The notes beneath the pieces were generated by a model. That model saw only the letters and a program-made list of their open reading frames with translations. It did not search any database and was not told where the DNA came from. From Arcobacter sp. LA11 (GTDB lineage: Bacteria > Campylobacterota > Campylobacteria > Campylobacterales > Arcobacteraceae): a DNA stretch of 64,000 nucleotides. Location: the NCBI RefSeq assembly GCF_001895145.1, contig NZ_BDIR01000012.1, positions 1-64,000 on the forward strand, written 5' to 3'. Below are positions 47,407-59,647 of the stretch, in pieces. Every line of letters starts with the position of its first letter. The first letter of the stretch is position 1. The position numbers and the translations under genes were made by a program.

Positions 47407-47913
47407 TTATTTAGATAAATTATCTAACTGAGTTATCATATTTCTAGCACTATCTTCGTTTAACGCTTTTTCATAAGATGTTAAAAGTTCTCTAGCTAAA
47501 ATATTTGCTCCTAAATGTTGAAACTGTATCCTCATAGCTTGAAGTACTTTTGTACCTCCACCACCACTATGAGTTGCCAGACCTACAACTTTTTCGTTGA
47601 AAGCATCTCTCCAGTTTTCTGTTGCTCTTGAAGTCCAAGACATAGCATTGTTTAAAACTGCTGGCATAACTCCATTGTACTCAGGAGCTACAACAATAAA
47701 AGCGTTTAAAGACAAAATCTTTTCGGCTAAATCTGTAGCACTTTTAGGAATACCATGTTTCTCTTCTTCTATTGTATTGTAAAGTGGTAAATCTAAATCA
47801 ACTAAATTTATAAGTTCTGTTTCTACATTTTGTTCACTTGCAATGCTTACAAGCTTTTGTCCTAGTTTCAAGTTGTTGTTTGAACTAGCGACTAAAATTC
47901 CTATTTTTGACAT
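47407..47913 (-). CDS. NADPH-dependent FMN reductase
   Basis: The 168-residue flavodoxin-like enzyme shows the phosphate loop GILVASSNNNLKLGQKL near 4-20, VVAPEYNGVMPAVLNNAMSW (72-95 region) and GGGGTKVLQAMR. It is close to YieF/AzoR-like chromate and quinone reductases, which reduce quinones, azo dyes or FMN with NAD(P)H and protect against oxidative stress. Single-gene unit; it marks the left border of the defence island. Confidence 0.88.
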   Translation of the reverse strand: MSKIGILVASSNNNLKLGQKLVSIASEQNVETELINLVDLDLPLYNTIEEEKHGIPKSATDLAEKILSLNAFIVVAPEYNGVMPAVLNNAMSWTSRATENWRDAFNEKVVGLATHSGGGGTKVLQAMRIQFQHLGANILARELLTSYEKALNEDSARNMITQLDNLSK

Positions 47914-47992
47914 GATAATCCTTGGTATTTATAATATTTATGGAATTCTATTCTCTTTTTATAAAAAGTCAATAAATTTTTTGAAATAAGTA

Positions 47993-48673
47993 TTAATTAT
48001 AAACTTGTTTTAGCCTATCGAGTAAAGAGTTTAATATCACTTCATCAATCTTAATATCAATTCTACTTGAAATAATAATTTGTAACTCTATAGTCTTATT
48101 AATATACTCAACTTGTTCATCTATAGAAAATCTTTTCCAGTTATTATTTGACTTTTGTCCATTATGGTACTTTGTTAAAAGTTGAAAGTTATCTGGATGA
48201 TGAACCCCTCTATTCTTTTTGTTTTTTAAAGCTTTTGCATGATCAACTTCAAAATGAATATTGTAAAACTCTTTAAACTCATCTCTTATTTTATAAAATT
48301 CATTAAGTCTATACTTATCAGAAGAATTCATGTTTTTTTCAGCTTCTTTTTTTGTAAGATTTATGTTTACATCTTCTAACTCTTCTTCTAACTCTTCTTT
48401 TGATTCTTCTTCTGTTATATATTTTACACGGCGAGGACGTTCACTATTATCTATCTTTATAAAACTATCAAAGCCACCAGTTGAAAGCCTAGAACTAATA
48501 CGAGCTGCTATTTCTCTTAAGCCCGTTGTATCATTCTTTTGATTCTGAGCTTCTTGGTTAGCTTTTTCTAAAACATCAGGATAAAGTTCTCCAACCTTTT
48601 CCGCCCATTGTGAAACAGTTATATAATCATCAAAACTTTTTAATGCTTCTAAATATTTTTCATGTATTTTCAT
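47993..48673 (-). CDS. HNH nuclease-like protein with N-terminal winged-helix-like domain
   Basis: The 226-residue protein (MKIHEKYLEALKS start) has an N-terminal ~90-residue domain resembling a DNA-binding winged helix (ITVSQWAEKVGELYPDVLEK, TTGLREIAARISSRL), an acidic linker, and an HNH site: VDHAKAL (DH 144-145), HHPDNFQLL (158-166) and YHNGQKSN (169-176). Its ATG (48673) is preceded by GGGAG four bases upstream, so I prefer it over an upstream TTG (48772). The same frame also runs on beyond 48673. The upstream 130 bases hold a fragment of another HNH gene. Likely a DNA-targeting nuclease of the defence island. Confidence 0.68.
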   Translation of the reverse strand: MKIHEKYLEALKSFDDYITVSQWAEKVGELYPDVLEKANQEAQNQKNDTTGLREIAARISSRLSTGGFDSFIKIDNSERPRRVKYITEEESKEELEEELEDVNINLTKKEAEKNMNSSDKYRLNEFYKIRDEFKEFYNIHFEVDHAKALKNKKNRGVHHPDNFQLLTKYHNGQKSNNNWKRFSIDEQVEYINKTIELQIIISSRIDIKIDEVILNSLLDRLKQVYN

Positions 48674-48677
48674 AAAA

Positions 48678-48682
48678 CTCCC
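48678..48682 (-). promoter_or_regulatory. ribosome binding site deciding the HNH start
   Basis: GGGAG on the minus strand, 4 bases before ATG 48673. It supports initiation inside the longer TTG-started frame. Confidence 0.5.
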
Positions 48683-48726
48683 TAAATCCAACTTTTCATA
48701 TTCTTCTTCAATATTATTTTCATCGA

Positions 48727-48804
48727 TTACGTTTTTTTGCATATTGCACAGCGACCTGCAAATTGTCCCCAAATTATATTTTTTGTTTTTGGTGTTACTG
48801 CCAT
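48727..48804 (-). pseudogene. truncated HNH N-terminal fragment
   Basis: A 25-codon frame starts at ATG 48804, 1 base after the RhuM-family stop, and reads MAVTPKTKN... FAGRCAICKKT before TAA. WGQFAGRCAICKK is typical of the first zinc-knuckle part of HNH nucleases, but the remainder is missing. The stop follows an A7 run on the minus strand; with eight A the frame would join the downstream HNH protein (270 residues in all). It is either a deletion remnant or a phase-variable or sequencing frameshift. Confidence 0.6.
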
Positions 48805-48805
48805 T

Positions 48806-49840
48806 TCATTTTCCCTCAATTTGATTAAGCAGTAAATCAAAATCAGATAAATATTTTTTATCTTGTATCACTCTATACTTTTCATATTCTGATTCTGCTT
48901 TTAGTTTAGCTTGAAGAGCAGATACTTTACCATTATCTAAAAGTATAGGATACATTGATAAATCCAAGAACTTATCTAAAAACTCTATCCAGTCTTTCAT
49001 ATTCATTACGATTCCACGATTCGCTCTATTATCTGCAAGATCAAGATATGCTGATACTATTTTTTCTAACTGTTTTATATGTTCACTATCAAGATAATTT
49101 TTTGCTGTACTTACATCTGATTTAAGTATCTTTCCATCTGGCGCATTTTTCCAAGTTTTAAGCCCCATATATATTTTAGTAGCATCAGCTTCACTATATA
49201 TTATCTCAGCAGCTGTTTTCCCACATATTGCCCAATGAAGTTTATTCTGAACAGTAGAATAAAACTGTTTTGTTAGATCATCATTTTTATCATAATCAGC
49301 ACTTAAAGCATATATATCTGTAATCTTTTGATAAAACCGTCTCTCACTAAGTCTTATTTCTCTTATACGCTCTAGTTGCTCTTCAAAGTAATCTATACCA
49401 AAATGTTGAAGATGTTTTAATCTTTCATCATCCATAGTAAAACCTTTGATGATATACTCATGTAAAATCTCACTTGCCCATTTTCTAAACTCTATAGCTC
49501 TATGAGAGTTTACTTTATAGCCTACGGCTGTGATTACTTTTAGATTGTAGTATTGAACTTCTTTAGTTTGAGTTTTTCCCTCTATTGCACCATGTTCTGT
49601 GGTATGTCGGAATTTCCGACATACCACTTTTTCATCTAATTCTTCATCATCAAATATCTTTTTAATATGCTCAGTGATAGTACTTCTACCCTTATCAAAA
49701 AGCTCTGCAATTTGCTTTTGAGTCAACCACAAAGTTTCATCATGGAAAAACACATTGATATTTACTTTTGCATCATCTATTTTAAATATCACAAAGTTTG
49801 AAAACTTTTGAGGAGTATTTATTGAGATTTGTTTATCCAT
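48806..49840 (-). CDS. RhuM-family protein
   Basis: The 344-residue protein is typical of the RhuM family (first described from Salmonella SPI-3). An N-terminal helix-turn-helix-like segment (WLTQKQIAELFDKGRSTITE, 33-52) precedes a central Bro/KilA-like region (YYNLKVITAVGYKVNSHRAI), then a helical C-terminus with LHWAICGKTAAEIIYSEAD. The function is unproven; the family is often near restriction and toxin genes. It lies 73 bases after the HNH nuclease gene of the hsd operon and 1 base before the HNH fragment. Confidence 0.85.
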   Translation of the reverse strand: MDKQISINTPQKFSNFVIFKIDDAKVNINVFFHDETLWLTQKQIAELFDKGRSTITEHIKKIFDDEELDEKVVCRKFRHTTEHGAIEGKTQTKEVQYYNLKVITAVGYKVNSHRAIEFRKWASEILHEYIIKGFTMDDERLKHLQHFGIDYFEEQLERIREIRLSERRFYQKITDIYALSADYDKNDDLTKQFYSTVQNKLHWAICGKTAAEIIYSEADATKIYMGLKTWKNAPDGKILKSDVSTAKNYLDSEHIKQLEKIVSAYLDLADNRANRGIVMNMKDWIEFLDKFLDLSMYPILLDNGKVSALQAKLKAESEYEKYRVIQDKKYLSDFDLLLNQIEGK

Positions 49841-49913
49841 ATTTTAGCCTATATTTTTATTTTATCTTATCAAAAAAAATTCTTTTTATTTAAAAACCTG
49901 TCATATTGCAATA

Positions 49914-50990
49914 TCAAATTATATCTACCTCTTGTAAATCCCTCAATATCCCTTTTCTCTTACACTCTTTAATAAAAGGAACTTCCCATAAGTAATCTTT
50001 ACTCAAAGGATTGCTTTTTTGATTCTCTTCTAAAAGTTCAATATATTCATCTATAGTATAAGGATTATCTTTTCTATTGATAGCAGTATTTACCTCATCC
50101 AACCAAGCTTTAGCTCCTAGTTTACTTGATACTTTTTGCTTATATCTATCTTTTATTCTAAATACCCTATCCCAGCTTTCAACTTCCTCTTTATATTTTA
50201 AAGTTTTTAGCTCTACATTGACATCTTTTTGAGATAAGGTTTCAATCTTTTTTGTTTGTAGGCTTACATCTACCCCTATATCAATATCATTTCCCCCATA
50301 AGGATAAAATGCCTTTACTCTTTTACCATTTTTTGCTATTGGATTTTTCTTAAGTTTATAAGAGGAATTACATCTATTACACATTGGAGCAAGATTTTTT
50401 AAATTGATCGAAGTAAAAGGGAAATCTCCTTTTGATAAAAAATGATCATAAGCCTCTTTTGGTAAGTTTCCCCCAAACTCTAAAAGATGCAACCCACAAA
50501 AAGGGCAAAGCTCTGTATTTTTTTTAATAAACTTTTTATAATGCCTATCCATACTACTATTAAGTATATCTTTTACATCTTTTAAATGGATCACATCGGT
50601 ATAGATACTTTCAAAGAACTTATGTATCTCTTTTGATAAATCCTCATCTATTTTTTTTAGATCATTAAAATCCATATAGATACGACTCTTATCTTCAAAA
50701 AGTTCTTGAATACTATTATTCATATCAAAAAACTGTGCAATTGTATTTTTTTGTATCTCACTAAGTTGTGCAAATTTTTCATAGATAGATTTTATAGGAG
50801 CATAAAGATGATCTTTTTTAACCTGTGGATTATTATATAACCGTATAATCATATCTTTAAGCTTATCATCTGTGATCAAATCCACATCAAAATCACCACT
50901 AGCATTACACCAAAAATCTTTTACAAGATATTTCATACACTCGTGCATAAGCTTTACATTATCATCTACATACTCATATTGAAATAACAT
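49914..50990 (-). CDS. HNH nuclease, PtuB-like
   Basis: The 358-residue protein has a helical N-terminal ~150 residues and an HNH site with zinc knuckles: CPFC at 162-165, YDHFLSKGDF (DH 182-183), NLAPMCNRCN (CxxC 204-207), then NPI. It starts 2 bases after the ATPase gene and so is coupled to it. A RecF/ABC-like ATPase beside an HNH nuclease is the arrangement of Septu (PtuA/PtuB), and ATPase-HNH pairs are also known beside type I restriction genes. The pair probably forms a nuclease complex; the trigger is unknown. Confidence 0.8.
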   Translation of the reverse strand: MLFQYEYVDDNVKLMHECMKYLVKDFWCNASGDFDVDLITDDKLKDMIIRLYNNPQVKKDHLYAPIKSIYEKFAQLSEIQKNTIAQFFDMNNSIQELFEDKSRIYMDFNDLKKIDEDLSKEIHKFFESIYTDVIHLKDVKDILNSSMDRHYKKFIKKNTELCPFCGLHLLEFGGNLPKEAYDHFLSKGDFPFTSINLKNLAPMCNRCNSSYKLKKNPIAKNGKRVKAFYPYGGNDIDIGVDVSLQTKKIETLSQKDVNVELKTLKYKEEVESWDRVFRIKDRYKQKVSSKLGAKAWLDEVNTAINRKDNPYTIDEYIELLEENQKSNPLSKDYLWEVPFIKECKRKGILRDLQEVDII

Positions 50991-50992
50991 AA

Positions 50993-52723
50993 CTACTTTT
51001 TAAAAAACTCCATTGTTTCTATAGACCTACCTATAATACTCTCTAACTCTTCAAGCACCTCTTTTTTATTTTTTGATTTTCGTAGTTTTTTCTTATACTC
51101 TTTTAATACCTCTTGTGCAAACTTACCTATTGTATTTGTCTCATCAAAAATATTCATTGTGATAAGATTTACAGAAGTTCCAAGGGTATTAAACTCAGGT
51201 CGCTTACAATCTACACTTCCATCTTCCAAATCCTTAGAAAAAATAAGCACCTTTTCTCTTCTAGTATCAGACACAATAAAAGGTGAATGGGAAGTTATCA
51301 AAAATTCTGCTTTTGCATAAGCTTTTTCATCTTCTTTTGAAGAAAAACATTTTCTTAATACACTCATATACTCCGCTCTCCAAGATGGGTTAAAGTGGGT
51401 CTCTGGTTCATCTAGTAAAAAGAGTGATTGGGTATCCCTATAGATTAGTGCTAGTCCTATGGAGTGTAAAAACTGATACTCTCCATCTGAGAGGGATTTA
51501 CTATATACTGGCTCATCAAGCCCTTTTTTCTTTAGCATAAAATTTTTAAAGGTGAAAAATCTTTTATTCCATGAGGCTTGGGGTAAGTAGCCTTTAGCAA
51601 AGAGGCTTTTTGATTCATAGAGTTTCTTTTTTGTCTCCACATCCACATGATAATAGTTTAAGTTTATAAGGGTTTGAAAGGTTTGAAAAAGGGTAAGTCT
51701 TCCCTCTTTTCCTATTCCAAACTGTAAAGTAAAAGCCTCTTTTAAATTATCATCTAAATAATAATCCAGAGAAAGATCCTTTGTTTTTTCATTTCTATAG
51801 TCCATAGTAGCACAGCTTTTTAGCTTTTCTATTTGCTCTGCAATTTGATCTTTTAAAAACCTTGATCTCTCTTTTAGCTGTGTTCCTTTTTTCCCTTTCT
51901 CTTTTACCTCAACTACCACTCTTGTATCTATATCATCTTTTATCACTATTCTAAAAGACTCCACAGATTTCACCCCTATAGTCTCTTTAAATACTTTATT
52001 CACCTTTTCATCCCCATAGATAAAATTAGTGATAAATATGGCTTGGGAAAAAACATCATCAAGGTAGATCATCCTAGATTCAGGGTTTTTAAAACGTATA
52101 TCTTTTGCTAAATAATCATCTAAATACTCATCATGTTGAATAAGTCTCATTTTATAAAAAGGTAAGCTTAGTATCTCATTTTGCCCTGATGAATACCCTA
52201 AAATATAAGAGGGTAAATACTCTTTTACATCATCCGCTAAAAGATATAGGGATTGTCCAGTATTATCTTCTATAGAAACCATAATATCTTTTTTTGGTTT
52301 TCGCTCAATTGTAACTAATATTTCATCGTTATTTTGATTGGTTATATAATATTGAAGTTTATACTTTTCTGGTTTTATTTTATACTTAGAGTTTTTAGTA
52401 AACTCTTGAAATATCTTTAGCTCTTTATATTCTCTATTATCTACATATTCATGCTCTTTATTTGAGATATATTTTTGCTTTTTATTATCCACATAAGGAG
52501 GATCAATCTCTTTTGGTAAAAAGTTAAGATGTTGTATCTCTACTTGATAAAATATAGCAGATAAAAGCTCCAAAATATTGGACTTACCACTTCCATTTCT
52601 CCCCACCACACAATATGGCTCTATAGCAGAGTTATCCCTTGGTGGCTCTTTTATAAAATCAAGACTAAATCCACTTTTTAAACTTCCAAAATCATCATGG
52701 AGTTCTATACGCTTAAGTCGCAT
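50993..52723 (-). CDS. RecF/ABC-type ATPase associated with the restriction system, PtuA-like
   Basis: The 576-residue ATPase has Walker A GRNGSGKS at 41-48, an ABC-like signature LSDGEYQ at 411-417, Walker B LFLLDEPETHF at 434-444 and the switch-region TSHSP at 477-481. A helical insertion of ~300 residues lies between the halves. This is the SMC/OLD-like layout of PtuA and of restriction-associated AAA proteins. ATG 52723 lies 7 bases after GGAG and inside the end of hsdS (19-base overlap), indicating translational coupling. Confidence 0.85.
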   Translation of the reverse strand: MRLKRIELHDDFGSLKSGFSLDFIKEPPRDNSAIEPYCVVGRNGSGKSNILELLSAIFYQVEIQHLNFLPKEIDPPYVDNKKQKYISNKEHEYVDNREYKELKIFQEFTKNSKYKIKPEKYKLQYYITNQNNDEILVTIERKPKKDIMVSIEDNTGQSLYLLADDVKEYLPSYILGYSSGQNEILSLPFYKMRLIQHDEYLDDYLAKDIRFKNPESRMIYLDDVFSQAIFITNFIYGDEKVNKVFKETIGVKSVESFRIVIKDDIDTRVVVEVKEKGKKGTQLKERSRFLKDQIAEQIEKLKSCATMDYRNEKTKDLSLDYYLDDNLKEAFTLQFGIGKEGRLTLFQTFQTLINLNYYHVDVETKKKLYESKSLFAKGYLPQASWNKRFFTFKNFMLKKKGLDEPVYSKSLSDGEYQFLHSIGLALIYRDTQSLFLLDEPETHFNPSWRAEYMSVLRKCFSSKEDEKAYAKAEFLITSHSPFIVSDTRREKVLIFSKDLEDGSVDCKRPEFNTLGTSVNLITMNIFDETNTIGKFAQEVLKEYKKKLRKSKNKKEVLEELESIIGRSIETMEFFKK

Positions 52724-54249
52724 TTTTTCACTCCTAGTAGTATCTGTTTTGTTTCCCTATCAAAGATTTGAAAAAGTTTTTCCTCTTTTAAAAGCTGAAA
52801 AATAGTATCTTTAAAAGTAAAAGGTTTTTCATTTTTATTTTGATCTTCATCATAGGGAATATCAAAGCCATATTTATCTGTAAATAGTTTATAAAGTTCT
52901 GTAAAAGTACTCTCTTTTTCTAGTAGCTCTTTAAGGATTTTTTGAAAGTATTTATCATCTTCTATAGTAAGAGTATGTATATACTCCTCTTTTCCTATCT
53001 CTGTAAAAGCATGTATAGAGCTTTCTTGAAGTATCTTTTCTGCTTTAGAACTACTAGGTTTATTTTTTATATATAGTGTTGAAACTTCTGATTTATCATA
53101 AGATGGACTTGTTTCTAAGAGTTCTGGTTTTACATCTATAAGCTCTTCTAAGCTATTTAAATCAAGCTCCCCTTTAAAAGCTTTTTGGGATACTGAAGCA
53201 AAAAGTTGATTTAGTTCATCAAGGCTTTTTTGATAGGTTTTTTTTGTGGTTTCTATTTTTTTTACTATATTTGAGAATTTATCTTGTAGGTCTTTATCAA
53301 CTACATATATTTTTTCTTTATGTACAATATTTCTATTTAAAGTGGGAACTCCAGCACCTCTTACAAATCTATTTAATTTAAAGAATTTAACTAAATAAGT
53401 TAAATAAATAAGATTATTTCCAAATGTATTAATACTAAATAAAGTTGTATTCAAAGGCCAAAAAGGTTTTTCTGAATAATATACTTCTCCAATTGTACCA
53501 GACCGCCCTGTTACAATACCATATTCACATCTATATTCATTATGATTAGTTAGTATTCCATTTGACCCATAAACATTAAAGTCACCATTTTCCTCTCTAT
53601 CTTTTTTAGGTAAATCATAGCCTCTTTGAAGCTTCACTACATTTTCAAATAAATCTATGGGTCTATTTTGACTATTAGTAATAGGATCACCAAATATATC
53701 CAAAAATGTACTTTTTACTAATTTATCAAGAAGCTCTATAGTTTTTTCCCTTTTTAAGATCAGGATTTCTATTTGGGATAATAGATTTGCTATTTTTTTC
53801 TGCTCTTCTATTGTATTTGGTAAAGGTATTTTAATTTTTGCTAGTGTTTTTTGATTAAGGGTTTTTCCTTTTACCGCTATTTTTGCATCATTTAATAATG
53901 GTACAAATTTTAAAGCATAATACAAATAATCTTTAGATAATTCCACATCTTCTTTTATATTTAAAGCGGCAATTGCTTCATTTGTATATAGATCACAATC
54001 TGTAAAAGCAAGTTTTCCTATACTTAGTTTAAAACTCATTAAAAGAGTACCTTTTTTTACAAGCCTACAGTTTTTTTCTTCCACTGCTTTTTGAGTTATT
54101 TGCTCTTTTGTTTTACATACTGTTTTTTCTTTTAAATCACTTATAGTAACCCAAGGATAACCTTTTCCCCAATATGTTTCTGTTTTTCTATCAGGTGTTT
54201 TACCTATTTGGATATTACATAGTTTTGAAAGCTCTACTAATTTATACAT
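52705..54249 (-). CDS. hsdS: type I restriction-modification specificity subunit HsdS with extra C-terminal domain
   Basis: The 514-residue subunit recognises the DNA target. Two target recognition domains (about 1-145 and 195-320) are each followed by a conserved helix (IEEQKKIANLLSQIEILILK, 147-166, and LQDKFSNIVKKIETTKKTYQ, 321-340). HsdS usually ends after the second helix region, near 400; here ~140 extra residues follow, including LYKLFTDKYGFDIPYDEDQN and a helix-rich tail. The extension abuts the ATPase gene start and may dock the ATPase; that is inference. Confidence 0.9.
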   Translation of the reverse strand: MYKLVELSKLCNIQIGKTPDRKTETYWGKGYPWVTISDLKEKTVCKTKEQITQKAVEEKNCRLVKKGTLLMSFKLSIGKLAFTDCDLYTNEAIAALNIKEDVELSKDYLYYALKFVPLLNDAKIAVKGKTLNQKTLAKIKIPLPNTIEEQKKIANLLSQIEILILKREKTIELLDKLVKSTFLDIFGDPITNSQNRPIDLFENVVKLQRGYDLPKKDREENGDFNVYGSNGILTNHNEYRCEYGIVTGRSGTIGEVYYSEKPFWPLNTTLFSINTFGNNLIYLTYLVKFFKLNRFVRGAGVPTLNRNIVHKEKIYVVDKDLQDKFSNIVKKIETTKKTYQKSLDELNQLFASVSQKAFKGELDLNSLEELIDVKPELLETSPSYDKSEVSTLYIKNKPSSSKAEKILQESSIHAFTEIGKEEYIHTLTIEDDKYFQKILKELLEKESTFTELYKLFTDKYGFDIPYDEDQNKNEKPFTFKDTIFQLLKEEKLFQIFDRETKQILLGVKKCDLSV

Positions 54250-54250
54250 T

Positions 54251-55882
54251 TTAGAATAAACTCTTTAAATCTTTAAGCTCACTTTGTATCTCATCTTCTA
54301 AACTTATAAGCTCATCTAAAATATCCTTTGGCGCATCATAAACTTCTTCTTCATAAGTAATTTCTTGGTAGCTTCCAAAGCTAAGGTCATAGCCGTTTTC
54401 TTTGATCTCTTTTTTAGGTACTAAGAAGTATTTTACTTTTCTATCATTTTGCTCTTTTAGACTGGCTCTTTCTTTATACTTTTTTATAATATCTTGTAAA
54501 TCACCATAGTCACGAGTCCCATCCTCTTTATATCTAGGTTTTCTTTTATCATCTAAATCGTATCCATCACTTTGCATATCATAGAAAAACACCTCATCAG
54601 TATCTCCACCTTTAGTAAAGATCAGTATAGCTGTAGCTACTCCTGCGTAGGGTTTAAATACCCCACTTGGCATAGTGATCACTGCTTTTAGTTCAGACTC
54701 TTCTATCATAAGTGCTCTAGCCTCTTTAAAAGCTTTGGCACTTCCAAAAAGCACCCCTTGAGGGATGATGATACCAGCTGTTCCACCTACCTTTAAAAGG
54801 GTATGAATCCTATCGATAAAAAGAAGCTCTGTTTTTGTAGTACCTAGTCTTAGTTTATCGTCCATCTCCCCTTTATTTAGGTTTCCTGTAAAGGGTGGAT
54901 TTGCTAAAACCACATCATAAGAGTTTAGCTCACCTTCATATTTTTGAAAACTTTTACTTAGGGTATCGGTGTATTCTATATTTGGGTTGGTGATACCGTG
55001 CATCATAAGGTTCATAAGACCAAGCCTTACCATGGTCACATCTATATCGTAGCCTTTTAGGCTAGTGTCTAGGGTCTTTTTTACCTCTTCTTTTAGTATA
55101 GCACTTGTACTACTTCTAGTAAAACCATTTTCATCTACTTTGTGGTGTTTACCCTCTGTATCCAGTGAAGTGGTGATATACTGATAGGCTCCTAGTAAAA
55201 ACCCTGCACTACCACAAGCTGGATCGGTAATCTTATTGCCATATTTTGGCTCTACAAGATCAACTAGTAGATTGATAATCTGCCGTGGGGTTCTAAACTG
55301 TCCATTTTTCCCTGCACTTGCGATCTCACTTAGAAGCATCTCATATACATCACCTTGGATATCTTGGTGGGCTTGTCCATTCTCCAAAGCATCTTTTTCT
55401 ATCTCTTTAAAAATATCTTCGATGATATACATAGCCTCATGTAAAAGAGATGCACTAGGTATCACAAATACGGCGTTTTTCATATATTTTGTAAAGTGGG
55501 AGTTTTCTCCGCCTATCTCTTTGATAAAAGGAAATACATATTGGGTGATATGCTCTAGTCTCTCTTCTGAGCTTAGATGGGTAAAGATACTCCATTTGAA
55601 TTCTGTTTTAGGAAAATCTTCAGGTTCTTCTTTTTCTTTACCTGTTTTTTTATCTATCTTTTTTACAAGTTTTGTATAAGTTCCCTCAAAAATAGAATCG
55701 TACTTTTCTCCAGTAAATTCAGCATTTTCTATATTTTTTATATCAAGATCATCAAGCTTTTTTATAAAAAGAAGATAAGTTATCTGCTCTATAGCTGTAA
55801 GTGGATTTGAGATACCTCCACTCCAAAATTTATTCCATAGTTTATCTATAAGGCTCTCTAGGTTTTTATTTAAATGCAACAT
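54251..55882 (-). CDS. hsdM: type I restriction-modification methyltransferase HsdM
   Basis: The 543-residue N6-adenine methyltransferase has the SAM-binding motif DPACGSAGF at 220-228 and the catalytic NPPF at 328-331, with an N-terminal helical HsdM domain that contacts HsdS. It starts at the last base of hsdR and ends 1 base before hsdS. Length is normal. It protects host DNA and is required for restriction. Confidence 0.96.
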   Translation of the reverse strand: MLHLNKNLESLIDKLWNKFWSGGISNPLTAIEQITYLLFIKKLDDLDIKNIENAEFTGEKYDSIFEGTYTKLVKKIDKKTGKEKEEPEDFPKTEFKWSIFTHLSSEERLEHITQYVFPFIKEIGGENSHFTKYMKNAVFVIPSASLLHEAMYIIEDIFKEIEKDALENGQAHQDIQGDVYEMLLSEIASAGKNGQFRTPRQIINLLVDLVEPKYGNKITDPACGSAGFLLGAYQYITTSLDTEGKHHKVDENGFTRSSTSAILKEEVKKTLDTSLKGYDIDVTMVRLGLMNLMMHGITNPNIEYTDTLSKSFQKYEGELNSYDVVLANPPFTGNLNKGEMDDKLRLGTTKTELLFIDRIHTLLKVGGTAGIIIPQGVLFGSAKAFKEARALMIEESELKAVITMPSGVFKPYAGVATAILIFTKGGDTDEVFFYDMQSDGYDLDDKRKPRYKEDGTRDYGDLQDIIKKYKERASLKEQNDRKVKYFLVPKKEIKENGYDLSFGSYQEITYEEEVYDAPKDILDELISLEDEIQSELKDLKSLF

Positions 55883-58665
55883 TATGCTACTAACTCCTGT
55901 GTAATATTTAGTATTTCATCTATCTCTGTTTTAGTAAATACTCCTCGTATACCAGAGGGATGTATCACTGTAAAAGGTGCAGATATTAGATCTTTTTTGC
56001 TTAAGCTCTCATTATCTATGATAAACCCTTTTAATAAATCCAAAAATTTTAACTGTGTAGTGGTAAGTGTAGGATGCTCTTTGATAAACTTATCAAAAGA
56101 TTCACTTACCGTATCTGGGAAGTTTTTAAGCTCTTCAAGTCCTAAGATATGCTTGATAAACTTTAAAAAAGGTGCTTTTTTATTCATATACACCCTACGC
56201 AAAAGATCAAGGGTGATAAAAGGGTCTTGCTCGTGTAGAGTGTGAGCTAACTCTTCTATCTCTTTTTCACTTAGACTTTTGCCCTCTTTTAGCTTTTGTA
56301 GGATTTTATTTTGATTTAAAAGCTCTTTGATCTTATCTTCTACCATTTGTTTGTATTTTGAGATACTCACAGACTCCCTATCTGCACCAAACTCCACATA
56401 CTCTTTTTTCTTGATATAATCTTTAAAATCAAAGATAGGAGTATCATCATCCTCAAGCTTTGATTCTGCCCTATATTTCATAAGCGGAGCAAGGGCTTTT
56501 ACTAAAATATCAAGATCACTATCTTTTAGATGGTTCCAGTATTTTACTTCTTTGGCTTTTGTGATAAGATTCTCTTCTTTGGCGACTATATTTACACTTA
56601 AAAGTAAGTTTTCTATTAAAGCTATAAGGGTATCTCTTTTTTTTACCCTATTTTCTTCGTCATTTTCAAGTAGATATATAGAGTACTCCAACACATCTTT
56701 TTCAAATCGCATCGCCTTATAATCCACCCCTACAATAGATTTGGCTAAGGGTTTTATGTAAGTATCTAAAAACTCTAAATTCTCCTTAGATAGAGTTCTA
56801 TAAAAGATAGAATCTAATTTATCAAGATGATTTTTCCCATCTTGTATGGTTGTAGAGTTTTTAGGGAAAAGCTCTATAAACTCTTGAAGCTTTTGTATCT
56901 CTTTTTTAGCTATCTCAATATCAAGCTTTAAAGCACTTTCTATCTTTTGAAGTCTAAGCTCAAAAAACCTTATGGGAAGTGGAGTATTTGGGATAAGACT
57001 TTTTCCTTGCGGTTCAAGTTTAAAATACTTAAAATTATCCCAACAATCCATAATAAGAAATTTCTCTTTTTCTTTACACCACGGTTTTAAGTTTTGCGGA
57101 TCAAGCAGTCTTGTACCCCGCCCTATCATCTGCCAAAACTTAGTATAAGAGTAAATAGGCTTTGCAAATACTAGGTTTGATACCTCTTTTATATCCACCC
57201 CCGTATCAAGCATACCCACACTTATGGCAATACGCGGCATATCTTGGGTTTTAAACTGATCTAAAAGCCCACCTTTTCCGTAAGCCCTACTATCATCAGA
57301 TACTATTACTTTGGCTAGTTCCCCATTATATTCAGGATATAAAGAGTTAAAAAGCTCTTCCACTCTTCTAGCATGGGCTTTTGTCATACAAAAGAAGATA
57401 CTCTTTGTGGGTATCACCCCATCACTATCTTTGATAGACTCTTCCATAAACTCTTTTACGATGATTCGATTTGTATCTTTATTTATCACATCTCTTTCTA
57501 GCTGAGTTCCTTCATAATTTATCTCTTCAATCTCTTTACCTTCTAAAATCATATTCTTTTGATCTTCTAAAGAAATAGTTCTTTTATTTAGTCCATCATC
57601 TTGAAACTTTGTCTGAATCTTTAGCACCTCAAAATCACAAAGATAAGGTGGAATATGATCCAACGCCTCCTCATAAGAATAAGCAAATGAAGGCAACCCA
57701 TCCTCACAAGAAAAAAGCTCAAAAGTGTTATGATCTATCACATTGGTTGGAGTTGCAGTAAGCCCAAGCTTTAAAGCATCAAAATACTCTAAAATCTCCC
57801 CATAAGTATTATAAATAGACCTATGAGATTCATCTATCACGATCAGATCAAAAAAGTGTGAAGATAAAGTTTGCTCCTCATCTCGTATAATATTTAACAT
57901 AGTTGGGTAAGTGGATACATAAATACGCCTATCTTTAGAAATACTACTCTCCCCAAACTTTGGCCAAATAGGCTCACTTGGAATATACTCTTTAAAAGCC
58001 TCTATAGCCTGCTCCCTTAAAGCCACCCTATCCACTAAAAAAAGAGTATTTTTAATATACCCAGCCCTTAAAAGAGCATCCACTAAAGCAATAGTAGTAC
58101 GAGTCTTCCCCGTACCAGTAGCCATCACCAGTAAAAAATCTCTTCTTTTTTTATCTATCAGTTCCATCACTGATCTTATAGCACTTACTTGATAATCCCT
58201 CCCTGCTATATGGGTATCAATAAACTCATGGGAAAGGGACTTTTTATAGTTTTGTATATGACGAAGACGCTCTAAATCCTCCCTAGTAGGATAAGCATAG
58301 ATTTTTCTAGGAGGGTAGTTTTCTATATCCCAAAAATATATGTCGTTGCCATTTGTATAAAAGCAAAAAGGAAGATCGATATTATGTTCAGCTTTTAGAT
58401 TGTAACAATACTGCTTAGCCTGTTCCTGCCCAACCCTGGGATCTCGTGAGCTTTTTTTAGCCTCAACTACAGCCAAAGGCTTCCCCTCACGACCTAGAAG
58501 AACATAATCACAAAACTGCTTTTTACCATAGCTAGGCTTTACATCAGATACAAAAGAAGTGTTTGAAAACTCTTGCCTTACTTGGGCATAGTTAGTTACA
58601 TCCCAGCCAGATAGGAGTAGTTTAGTATCAATAAGTTCTTGTCGTGTCTGTGTTTCGTTTTGCAA
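55882..58665 (-). CDS. hsdR: type I restriction endonuclease subunit HsdR
   Basis: The 927-residue motor and nuclease subunit has an N-terminal PD-(D/E)xK nuclease site (CDYVLL with D53; VVEAKK with E68 and K70), an SF2 helicase core with MATGTGKTRT at 181-190, IDESHRSIYN, GMLDTGVDI and QMIGRGTRL. It resembles the EcoEI HsdR type. The start is TTG at 58665: an in-frame stop lies 6 bases upstream, and the next in-frame Met is far downstream. Its first-gene position suggests the operon promoter lies within 58666-58801, where I see no convincing -10. Confidence 0.95.
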   Translation of the reverse strand: MQNETQTRQELIDTKLLLSGWDVTNYAQVRQEFSNTSFVSDVKPSYGKKQFCDYVLLGREGKPLAVVEAKKSSRDPRVGQEQAKQYCYNLKAEHNIDLPFCFYTNGNDIYFWDIENYPPRKIYAYPTREDLERLRHIQNYKKSLSHEFIDTHIAGRDYQVSAIRSVMELIDKKRRDFLLVMATGTGKTRTTIALVDALLRAGYIKNTLFLVDRVALREQAIEAFKEYIPSEPIWPKFGESSISKDRRIYVSTYPTMLNIIRDEEQTLSSHFFDLIVIDESHRSIYNTYGEILEYFDALKLGLTATPTNVIDHNTFELFSCEDGLPSFAYSYEEALDHIPPYLCDFEVLKIQTKFQDDGLNKRTISLEDQKNMILEGKEIEEINYEGTQLERDVINKDTNRIIVKEFMEESIKDSDGVIPTKSIFFCMTKAHARRVEELFNSLYPEYNGELAKVIVSDDSRAYGKGGLLDQFKTQDMPRIAISVGMLDTGVDIKEVSNLVFAKPIYSYTKFWQMIGRGTRLLDPQNLKPWCKEKEKFLIMDCWDNFKYFKLEPQGKSLIPNTPLPIRFFELRLQKIESALKLDIEIAKKEIQKLQEFIELFPKNSTTIQDGKNHLDKLDSIFYRTLSKENLEFLDTYIKPLAKSIVGVDYKAMRFEKDVLEYSIYLLENDEENRVKKRDTLIALIENLLLSVNIVAKEENLITKAKEVKYWNHLKDSDLDILVKALAPLMKYRAESKLEDDDTPIFDFKDYIKKKEYVEFGADRESVSISKYKQMVEDKIKELLNQNKILQKLKEGKSLSEKEIEELAHTLHEQDPFITLDLLRRVYMNKKAPFLKFIKHILGLEELKNFPDTVSESFDKFIKEHPTLTTTQLKFLDLLKGFIIDNESLSKKDLISAPFTVIHPSGIRGVFTKTEIDEILNITQELVA

Positions 58666-58801
58666 GCTCTACTCATTTTATAATTTTATAGAAGATATTT
58701 TATCTTTTTATCTATTATATTATACTTGTGTCACAATCCACATCATAAGAAAAATATTTTGAAGAATTAAAAAAAAGAAAGAACTCTAGCAAAGAAGTAA
58801 A

Positions 58802-59647
58802 TTACTTCTCCACTAAATCATAAAGCCCTTGAATCTCTTCAGCCCAAATCTCTTCATTGATAGTTTCAAGTACCATTGGAATATCATCCATTCTATCATC
58901 ATTCATGATAAATTTAAAAGCATCCCATCCAATTTTCCCAACACCTAAAGAATCGTGTCTATCTACTCTACTTCCTAGTTCTGGCTTTGAGTCATTTAAG
59001 TGCATTCCCATAAGATATTCACGTCCTACTATATCATCAAACTCTTTCCAAGTTTTATCATAGGCTTCTCTTGTTCTGATATCATACCCAGCAGTAAACA
59101 TGTGACAGGTATCTATACATACACCTACTCTGCTTTTATCTTCTATTTTATCTATTATATGTGCTAGGTGTTCGAACTTGTATCCTAAGTTTGAGCCTTG
59201 TCCTGCTGTGTTTTCTATTACTAGTTTCACATCATTTGTAGCATCAATTGCTTGATTCATAGAAAGTGCAATTCTATCTAGACATTCCTCTTCTGATATT
59301 TTTCTCAAGTGTGAACCTGGGTGGAAATTTAGTCTATCTAGTTTTAGTATTTCACATCTTTCTAATTCATGGATAAAACCATTTAAAGATTTTTCTCTTT
59401 TTTCTTCTTCTGGGTGTCCAAGATTTATAAGATATGAGTCATGAGGTAAGATGTGTTTAGCTTCAATTCCACATTTTTCTAACTCTTCAAACCATTTATC
59501 AAGTACTTTTGCTTCTAAAGGTTTTGCAGCCCATTGTCTTTGATTTTTTGTAAATAGAGCAAAAGCTTTTGCTCCGATTGCAGTTGCGTTTATTGGTGCA
59601 TTAAAAACTCCACCACTCGCACTAACATGTGCTCCAACGTATTTCAT
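58802..59647 (-). CDS. nfo: endonuclease IV
   Basis: The 281-residue AP endonuclease repairs abasic sites. It is a TIM barrel with three Zn sites; ligands appear in [27 protein letters not shown] and [20 protein letters not shown], and the N-terminal GAHVSASGG is diagnostic. The length is typical. It flanks the defence island and looks native. Confidence 0.95.

What the first reader, a model, noticed from the sequence alone, without database searches (positions are those of the whole stretch)
49914..58665. Type I restriction operon carrying a Septu-like ATPase-HNH pair
hsdR, hsdM, hsdS, a RecF/ABC-type ATPase and an HNH nuclease are in one operon with overlaps of 1-19 bases or gaps of 1-2. 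Septu (PtuA/PtuB) is normally independent of restriction genes, while restriction-associated ATPases are known without a settled role. Fixed coupling suggests one machine or a backup acting when HsdR is inhibited.
Basis: partly seen in the sequence, partly recalled or inferred. Interest (0 to 1): 0.65.

Follow-up and report, generated by a model that had tools for sequence, protein, structure and literature searches.

The report
Restriction operon with built-in Septu-type effector
A bacterial DNA restriction operon carries, as a fixed part, a two-protein nuclease related to the Septu anti-phage system; related operons in at least five phyla keep that pair next to the DNA-recognition gene even where the usual cutting subunit is gone, which suggests one coupled defence machine rather than two neighbours.

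Summary
The five-gene operon is real. The ATPase is a full-length member of NCBIfam TIGR04435 ('restriction system-associated AAA family ATPase', no known function). The fifth protein has no Pfam family and is PtuB-like. In 34 related loci from at least five phyla the ATPase is always followed by this HNH protein and, wherever the contig allows a check, preceded by hsdS (33 of 33). Among 28 weaker ATPase relatives from the same phylum, 25 pair with an HNH gene and none lies beside hsdS.

HsdS in these operons has an extra C-terminal domain not detected in 30 ordinary HsdS proteins, a candidate docking site. hsdR is missing from seven intact loci, and four of these, from two phyla, form a well-supported clade. 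The core is therefore hsdM, hsdS, ATPase and HNH. A pure 'backup when HsdR is inhibited' role cannot hold for the whole family.

Best reading: a latent PtuAB-type effector held and triggered by the HsdM-HsdS complex, as PrrC is by EcoprrI and PtuAB by a retron. Coupling rests on synteny and domain evidence; trigger and target are inferred. New variant of a known kind.

The parts
55882..58665 (-). hsdR, type I restriction subunit (927 aa, TTG start)
   Evidence: Pfam ResIII, EcoEI_R_C, HSDR_N; EAK, GTGKT and DESH motifs
54251..55882 (-). hsdM, N6-adenine methyltransferase subunit (543 aa)
   Evidence: Pfam N6_Mtase and HsdM_N; NPPF and DPACGSAG
52705..54249 (-). hsdS, specificity subunit (514 aa) with extra C-terminal domain
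   Evidence: Pfam Methylase_S, two stretches; length and tail analysis
52705..53163 (-). C-terminal extension of HsdS after the usual AFKGEL end (residues 363-514), proposed docking domain
   Evidence: leave-one-out profile 22 bits for this protein; maximum 4.2 bits in 30 ordinary HsdS
50993..52723 (-). ABC/SMC-type ATPase, PtuA-like, TIGR04435 (576 aa)
   Evidence: TIGR04435 552 bits; PADLOC PtuA1 3e-59; fold match to retron/Septu PtuA, Z 18.2
52580..52603 (-). Walker A GRNGSGKS (residues 41-48)
   Evidence: GxNGSGKS invariant in A1; G41, N43, G46, K47 invariant in A3
51401..51493 (-). LSDGE signature and Walker B LFLLDEPE region (residues 411-441)
   Evidence: invariant columns S412, G414, D438, E439, P440
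49914..50990 (-). HNH nuclease, PtuB-like (358 aa), no Pfam family
   Evidence: PADLOC PDC-M62B/PDC-M01B/PtuB; structural match to retron-Eco7 chain 9vhl_F, Z 8.8 over 188 residues
50367..50507 (-). HNH catalytic segment: C162/C165, D182-H183, N199, C204/C207, N208
   Evidence: invariant or nearly invariant columns; H-to-N spacing 16
58785..58817 (-). terminator-like hairpin between nfo and hsdR, setting the operon's 5' limit
   Evidence: consensus match only

Best explanation
This is a type I restriction-modification operon with a built-in PtuAB-type effector. HsdM and HsdS form the sequence-specific DNA-binding methyltransferase. The ATPase and the HNH protein form a Septu-like complex that is held inactive on HsdM-HsdS, probably through the extra C-terminal domain of HsdS. 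When that complex meets unmethylated foreign DNA, or is bound or broken by a phage anti-restriction protein, the ATPase changes state and licenses the HNH nuclease, which cuts either the invading DNA or a host RNA such as a tRNA. HsdR, where present, adds ordinary type I cleavage but is not needed for the effector. Shown here: operon, family membership, fixed synteny, HsdS extension, hsdR-less lineage, PtuA/PtuB folds (predicted models). Inferred: physical contact, latency, trigger and target.
For: hsdS directly upstream in 33 of 33 and HNH directly downstream in 34 of 34 loci of this ATPase clade, versus hsdS beside 0 of 28 and HNH beside 25 of 28 weaker relatives in the same phylum. The tree separates the hsd-linked ATPases from 11 standalone pairs with 100/100 support. 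HsdS of these operons carries a C-terminal domain: leave-one-out median 26 bits in 29 proteins versus at most 4.2 bits in 30 ordinary HsdS, with partial recognition across two restriction backbones whose HsdM share about 26%. hsdR is absent from seven intact loci, four of which form a starred clade (99/99) over two phyla. Distances of HsdM, ATPase and HNH correlate (Mantel p 0.001). Folds match PtuA and PtuB. Precedents: PtuAB is toxic and neutralised by the retron RT plus msr-msd, and depletes tRNA-Tyr (PMC11555353, PMC13096335); PrrC is held latent by EcoprrI (PMC3874165).
Against: No physical or functional data. Correlated distances and synteny also follow from co-transfer of a mobile cassette. 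About six of the 29 HsdS tails score no better or hardly better than controls (L036, L039, L041, L045, L109 and marginally L038), and L087 was left out because its extension is short, so docking through this domain is not universal. The cross-backbone match of the tail is modest. The HNH protein is much more variable than its neighbours (37-39% where HsdM is 85-93%), which is unexpected for a tightly held subunit, although its ends are conserved.
Confidence: 0.55

Rival explanations
1. Two independent systems in one transcript: an ordinary type I enzyme and a Septu pair that share a promoter and travel together, complementary but without contact (as TgvAB inside the Vibrio type I operon protects on its own).
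For: Precedent: TgvAB embedded in a type I operon gives protection without HsdR restriction activity (PMC11411939). The locus sits in a chromosomal site that swaps defence cargo.
Against: Strict hsdS-ATPase-HNH adjacency across at least five phyla and two restriction backbones, a dedicated HsdS domain, and no member of the clade seen away from hsdS. Ordinary neighbours would be expected to separate sometimes.
Confidence: 0.22
2. PrrC-like guard of the whole restriction enzyme: the pair is a backup that fires only when the HsdR-containing complex is inhibited by phage.
For: EcoprrI-PrrC is the classic case (PMC3874165, PMC12707154). Of the 28 loci where hsdR could be scored, 21 have hsdR or a part of it adjacent.
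Against: hsdR is missing from seven intact loci, including a supported clade over two phyla. A guard of HsdM-HsdS (for example against Ocr- or ArdA-like proteins) remains possible and is included in the best explanation.
Confidence: 0.15
3. The pair is an alternative restriction nuclease: ATPase-HNH is recruited to unmethylated sites by HsdM-HsdS and cuts foreign DNA, replacing HsdR in the hsdR-less operons. (This is one specific form of the best explanation, so the confidences overlap.)
For: The hsdR-less clade keeps NPPF-bearing HsdM and HsdS; one Septu PtuAB is reported to cut nicked DNA (cited in PMC11555353).
Against: Other PtuAB complexes cut tRNA-Tyr. Most operons keep hsdR as well. No DNA-cleavage data.
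Confidence: 0.3

Closest known systems
Septu (PtuA/PtuB)
   Same: ABC/SMC-type ATPase followed by an HNH nuclease; PtuA and PtuB folds; H-to-N spacing of 16 as between the PtuB residues H75 and N91 tested in Septu EcB88
   Different: Always beside hsdS; separate ATPase clade; HNH mostly longer, with catalytic His at 145-204 against 112-154 in 22 of 25 standalone pairs; not a self-contained two-gene operon
Retron I-A (Ec78/Eco7), PtuAB with RT and msDNA
   Same: PtuAB-type effector attached to a partner module that could restrain and trigger it
   Different: Partner is a type I methyltransferase; no reverse transcriptase gene in the operon and no Rfam match
PrrC-EcoprrI
   Same: Effector gene fixed in a type I operon; proposed latency on the Hsd complex
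   Different: Two-protein ATPase plus HNH instead of the single PrrC protein; hsdR can be absent
TIGR04435 restrict_AAA_1
   Same: The ATPase is a full member (552 bits, cut-off 300)
   Different: A named family without a described function; the held library has no paper naming it; the name covers neither the HNH partner nor the HsdS domain
MADS (methylation-associated defence system)
   Same: Type I-like methyltransferase and specificity genes with an AAA ATPase
   Different: ATPase reaches only 23.6 bits against MAD3 (cut-off 420) and HsdM 115 against MAD2 (cut-off 720)

Membership tests
TIGR04435 restriction system-associated ATPase | score above the curated cut-off of 300 bits over the full model | tested here: met
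   552 bits, model positions 1-561 of 568
Type I restriction-modification | hsdR, hsdM and hsdS with catalytic and nucleotide-binding motifs | tested here: met
Septu (PtuAB) | PtuA-type ABC ATPase with Walker A, signature and Walker B | tested here: met
   PADLOC PtuA1 3.2e-59; invariant motif columns; fold Z 18.2 over 319 residues at 4.3 A, with Rad50/SMC heads close behind at about 16
Septu (PtuAB) | adjacent PtuB-type HNH nuclease | tested here: met
   weak sequence match 6e-6; only structural match above Z 5 is retron-Eco7 chain 9vhl_F, Z 8.8, 188 residues, 5.2 A
Septu (PtuAB) | self-contained two-gene operon | tested here: not met
   part of a five-gene hsd operon; never seen away from hsdS in this clade
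Septu (PtuAB) | anti-phage activity needing both proteins | not testable with these tools
   needs phage assays
Retron I-A | reverse transcriptase and msr-msd RNA | tested here: not met
   no such gene in the operon; no Rfam match in the window; NCBIfam retron PtuA 49.7 of 500 bits
PrrC anticodon nuclease | single PrrC protein with ATPase and nuclease parts inside an hsd operon | tested here: not met
   no PrrC-type family among the listed hits of either protein; the nuclease is a separate HNH protein
MADS | MAD2 and MAD3 above curated cut-offs | tested here: not met
   115 of 720 and 23.6 of 420 bits

The most novel reading that the evidence does not exclude
The hsdR-less lineage is a distinct kind of restriction system in which an HsdM-HsdS complex, through a dedicated HsdS C-terminal domain, commands a PtuAB-type ATPase-HNH effector in place of HsdR; operons that also keep hsdR, like this one, carry two effectors on one recognition complex.
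Probability: 0.3. Interest if true: 0.8.

Novelty: new variant of a known kind. Interest (0 to 1): 0.62.

Why it matters
PtuAB is already known to be wired to a retron, which neutralises it until phage infection. A second wiring, to a type I methyltransferase, would show that PtuAB is a general effector plugged into different sensors. It would give the unexplained TIGR04435 ATPase a role, offer a natural case of a type I system working without HsdR, and make the question 'does the methyltransferase core itself sense phage?' directly testable with one operon and single-gene deletions.

Tried and rejected
Backup for inhibited HsdR as the general function: rejected for the family because of the hsdR-less clade. 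Retron: no reverse transcriptase, no Rfam hit. MADS: below cut-offs. Chance adjacency: rejected by 33 of 33 synteny. Structure search of the HNH model with Foldseek alone gave no match with E below 0.001; only the second aligner found PtuB. Sequence-profile search of the HNH family against the PDB found nothing relevant. The HsdS tail profile has no significant PDB match; the best, E 0.017 to a 25-residue stretch of SMC1A, is treated as chance. Phage genome records hold no match. A Schlafen group 3 (DUF2075) helicase lies upstream of hsdM in two hsdR-less loci (L035, L047) but was not seen in the others, so it is not taken as a substitute for HsdR. Possible circularity of TIGR04435 (curated as restriction-associated) was addressed by looking at sub-threshold relatives; flanks there were only about 1.5 kb.

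Full report
What is there. The five reading frames are at the stated places on the minus strand, with overlaps or gaps of 1, 1, 19 and 2 bases. HsdR, HsdM and HsdS are ordinary by Pfam and carry intact motifs. The ATPase is a full-length TIGR04435 protein, 552 bits against a cut-off of 300, and PADLOC places it with PtuA1 at 3e-59. The last protein has no Pfam or NCBIfam family above cut-off; PADLOC candidates PDC-M62B and PDC-M01B and weakly PtuB match it. A hairpin with a T-run follows the upstream nfo gene, which sets the 5' limit of the operon.

Fold. AlphaFold models reach mean pLDDT 79.5 (ATPase) and 82.7 (HNH). The ATPase model matches retron and Septu PtuA chains first (Z 18.2, 319 residues, 4.3 A) with Rad50 and SMC heads close behind at about 16; the PtuA matches run to the C-terminus of the model, the Rad50 and SMC ones do not. 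Foldseek found nothing for the HNH model; the second aligner gave one clear match, chain F of the retron-Eco7 complex 9vhl, at Z 8.8 over 188 residues, the next being 3.8. The distance from catalytic His to Asn is 16 residues (H183, N199), the same as H75 to N91 in the PtuB of Septu EcB88.

Survey. TIGR04435 members above cut-off are rare: 2 of 298 genomes drawn from the window's own phylum (that this is Campylobacterota is my inference from gene content, not stated by the tools), 8 of 395 in the phylum of a Flavobacterium genome, 2 of 398 in the phylum of a Ramlibacter genome. With plasmid, genome and viral-collection loci I assembled 34 loci, from the window's phylum, Bacteroidota, Pseudomonadota, Bacillota and Cyanobacteriota. 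Profile annotation shows the HNH gene directly after the ATPase in all 34 and hsdS directly before it in all 33 where the contig reaches. hsdM usually comes before hsdS but follows the HNH gene in L108 and L086. Two loci (L048, L086) have frame-broken genes.

Control for circularity. TIGR04435 was curated as restriction-associated, so I looked at 28 sub-threshold relatives in the window's own phylum: 25 have an HNH gene beside them and none has hsdS within the roughly 1.5 kb held. The tree of 48 ATPases separates 11 standalone pairs from all hsd-linked ones with 100/100 support. Linkage to hsd is thus a property of this side of the tree, next to a much larger pool of ordinary Septu-like pairs. 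The 28 TIGR04435-type rows group together with only 84/96 support, short of a starred branch.

HsdR is optional. Seven intact loci with enough flank have no hsdR (L035 Priestia plasmid, L036 Hymenobacter plasmid, L038, L039, L047 Alistipes, L083, L084); L046 is unclear because insertion-element genes lie upstream. In 21 loci hsdR, or in L053 and L109 a part of it, is adjacent. Four hsdR-less loci (L038, L047, L083, L084) form one starred clade, 99/99, spanning two phyla, so this is a stable arrangement and not only recent loss. The window's HsdR finds no relative at 1e-15 in the genomes of L038, L047, L083 and L084. Other HsdR-type genes exist elsewhere in three of these four genomes, so supply in trans is not excluded. 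L039 is in the same genus as the window and at the same site, with hsdM 65% identical, and hsdM starts about 70 bases after nfo with no hsdR in between.

HsdS has an extra domain. HsdS in these operons measures 463-570 aa in 27 proteins; ordinary HsdS in the same bacterial family has a median open frame of 406 aa in 69 genes that I picked by hand from the search table as one value per gene. The extra part follows the usual AFKGEL-type end (residue 362 here). A profile of the last 75 residues, scored leave-one-out, gives a median of 26 bits in 29 proteins and at most 4.2 bits in 30 ordinary HsdS fetched as controls, which mostly stop at the usual end. A profile from one restriction backbone recognises some HsdS of another whose HsdM shares about 26% (L052 21.6 bits, L046 15.4), with controls at most 4.5. 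About six members score like controls, so the domain is either divergent or absent there. I read it as a docking domain; that is inference.

Evolution of the parts. Pairwise identities of all five proteins correlate, as expected from co-inheritance. Within close operons the HNH protein is far more variable than the rest: L043 and L085 share 93% (HsdR), 89% (HsdM), 69% (ATPase) and 37% (HNH); L078 and L080 share 93%, 84% and 39% for HsdM, ATPase and HNH, in the second pair with conserved HNH ends around a diverged middle. This looks like allelic replacement of the effector and resembles what HsdS does; the number of pairs is small.

Setting. In the genus, the site between nfo and an NADPH-reductase gene holds different cargo: empty in G299 (about 113 bases), another type I system in G302, CRISPR-Cas genes in G298 and G306, small HTH modules or a transposase elsewhere. 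It behaves as a defence hotspot.

How it most likely works. PtuAB of retron-Eco7 is toxic, is neutralised by its retron partner and depletes tRNA-Tyr; Septu EcB88 cuts the same tRNA; another PtuAB is reported to cut nicked DNA (PMC11555353, PMC13096335). PrrC is held latent on a type I enzyme and released when phage T4 infects (PMC3874165). The simplest fit to fixed synteny with hsdS, an HsdS-specific domain and dispensable hsdR is a PtuAB-type effector held on HsdM-HsdS. Whether the trigger is unmethylated DNA or an anti-restriction protein, and whether the target is DNA or tRNA, is open. Independent coexistence, as for TgvAB (PMC11411939), is the main rival.

Novelty. The ATPase family has a name, PADLOC would call the ATPase PtuA, and type I operons with extra genes are well known. 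In the held library no paper names TIGR04435 or, as far as the searches showed, describes this pairing; unheld literature may. The HsdS domain, the hsdR-less clade and the HNH variability are, as far as I could check, undescribed.

Noticed in passing
window 47407-59647: The interval between nfo (58802-59647) and an NADPH-reductase gene (47407-47913) is a variable defence hotspot in the genus: empty in G299, another type I system in G302, CRISPR-Cas in G298 and G306.
   Followed up: partly
window 47993-49840: Downstream of the operon lie a RhuM-family gene (48806-49840, PADLOC candidate PDC-S05) and a second HNH-like ORF (47993-48772) without a known family; at the same site in L039 a RhuM gene again sits beside a different HNH gene (PF13391).
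   Followed up: partly
L043/L085, L078/L080, L050/L085: The HNH protein is hypervariable (37-39% identity) in operons whose HsdR, HsdM and ATPase are 69-93% identical.
   Followed up: partly
L054-L059, L071, L088, L049, L061: Other, more distant ATPase clades also sit directly after hsdS or inside hsd operons, mostly without a detected HNH gene; they may be further type I-coupled effectors.
   Followed up: no
L037 6710-8427: In Sphingobium plasmid pKN1 an unknown gene and a GIY-YIG nuclease gene lie between hsdM and hsdS of a TIGR04435 operon.
   Followed up: no
L035 4129-6012, L047 4206-5978: A Schlafen group 3 (DUF2075) helicase gene lies upstream of hsdM in two of the hsdR-less loci, in opposite orientations.
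   Followed up: partly
L048 and L086: Two loci of the family have frame-broken genes in or around the ATPase, so the cassette decays in some hosts.
   Followed up: no
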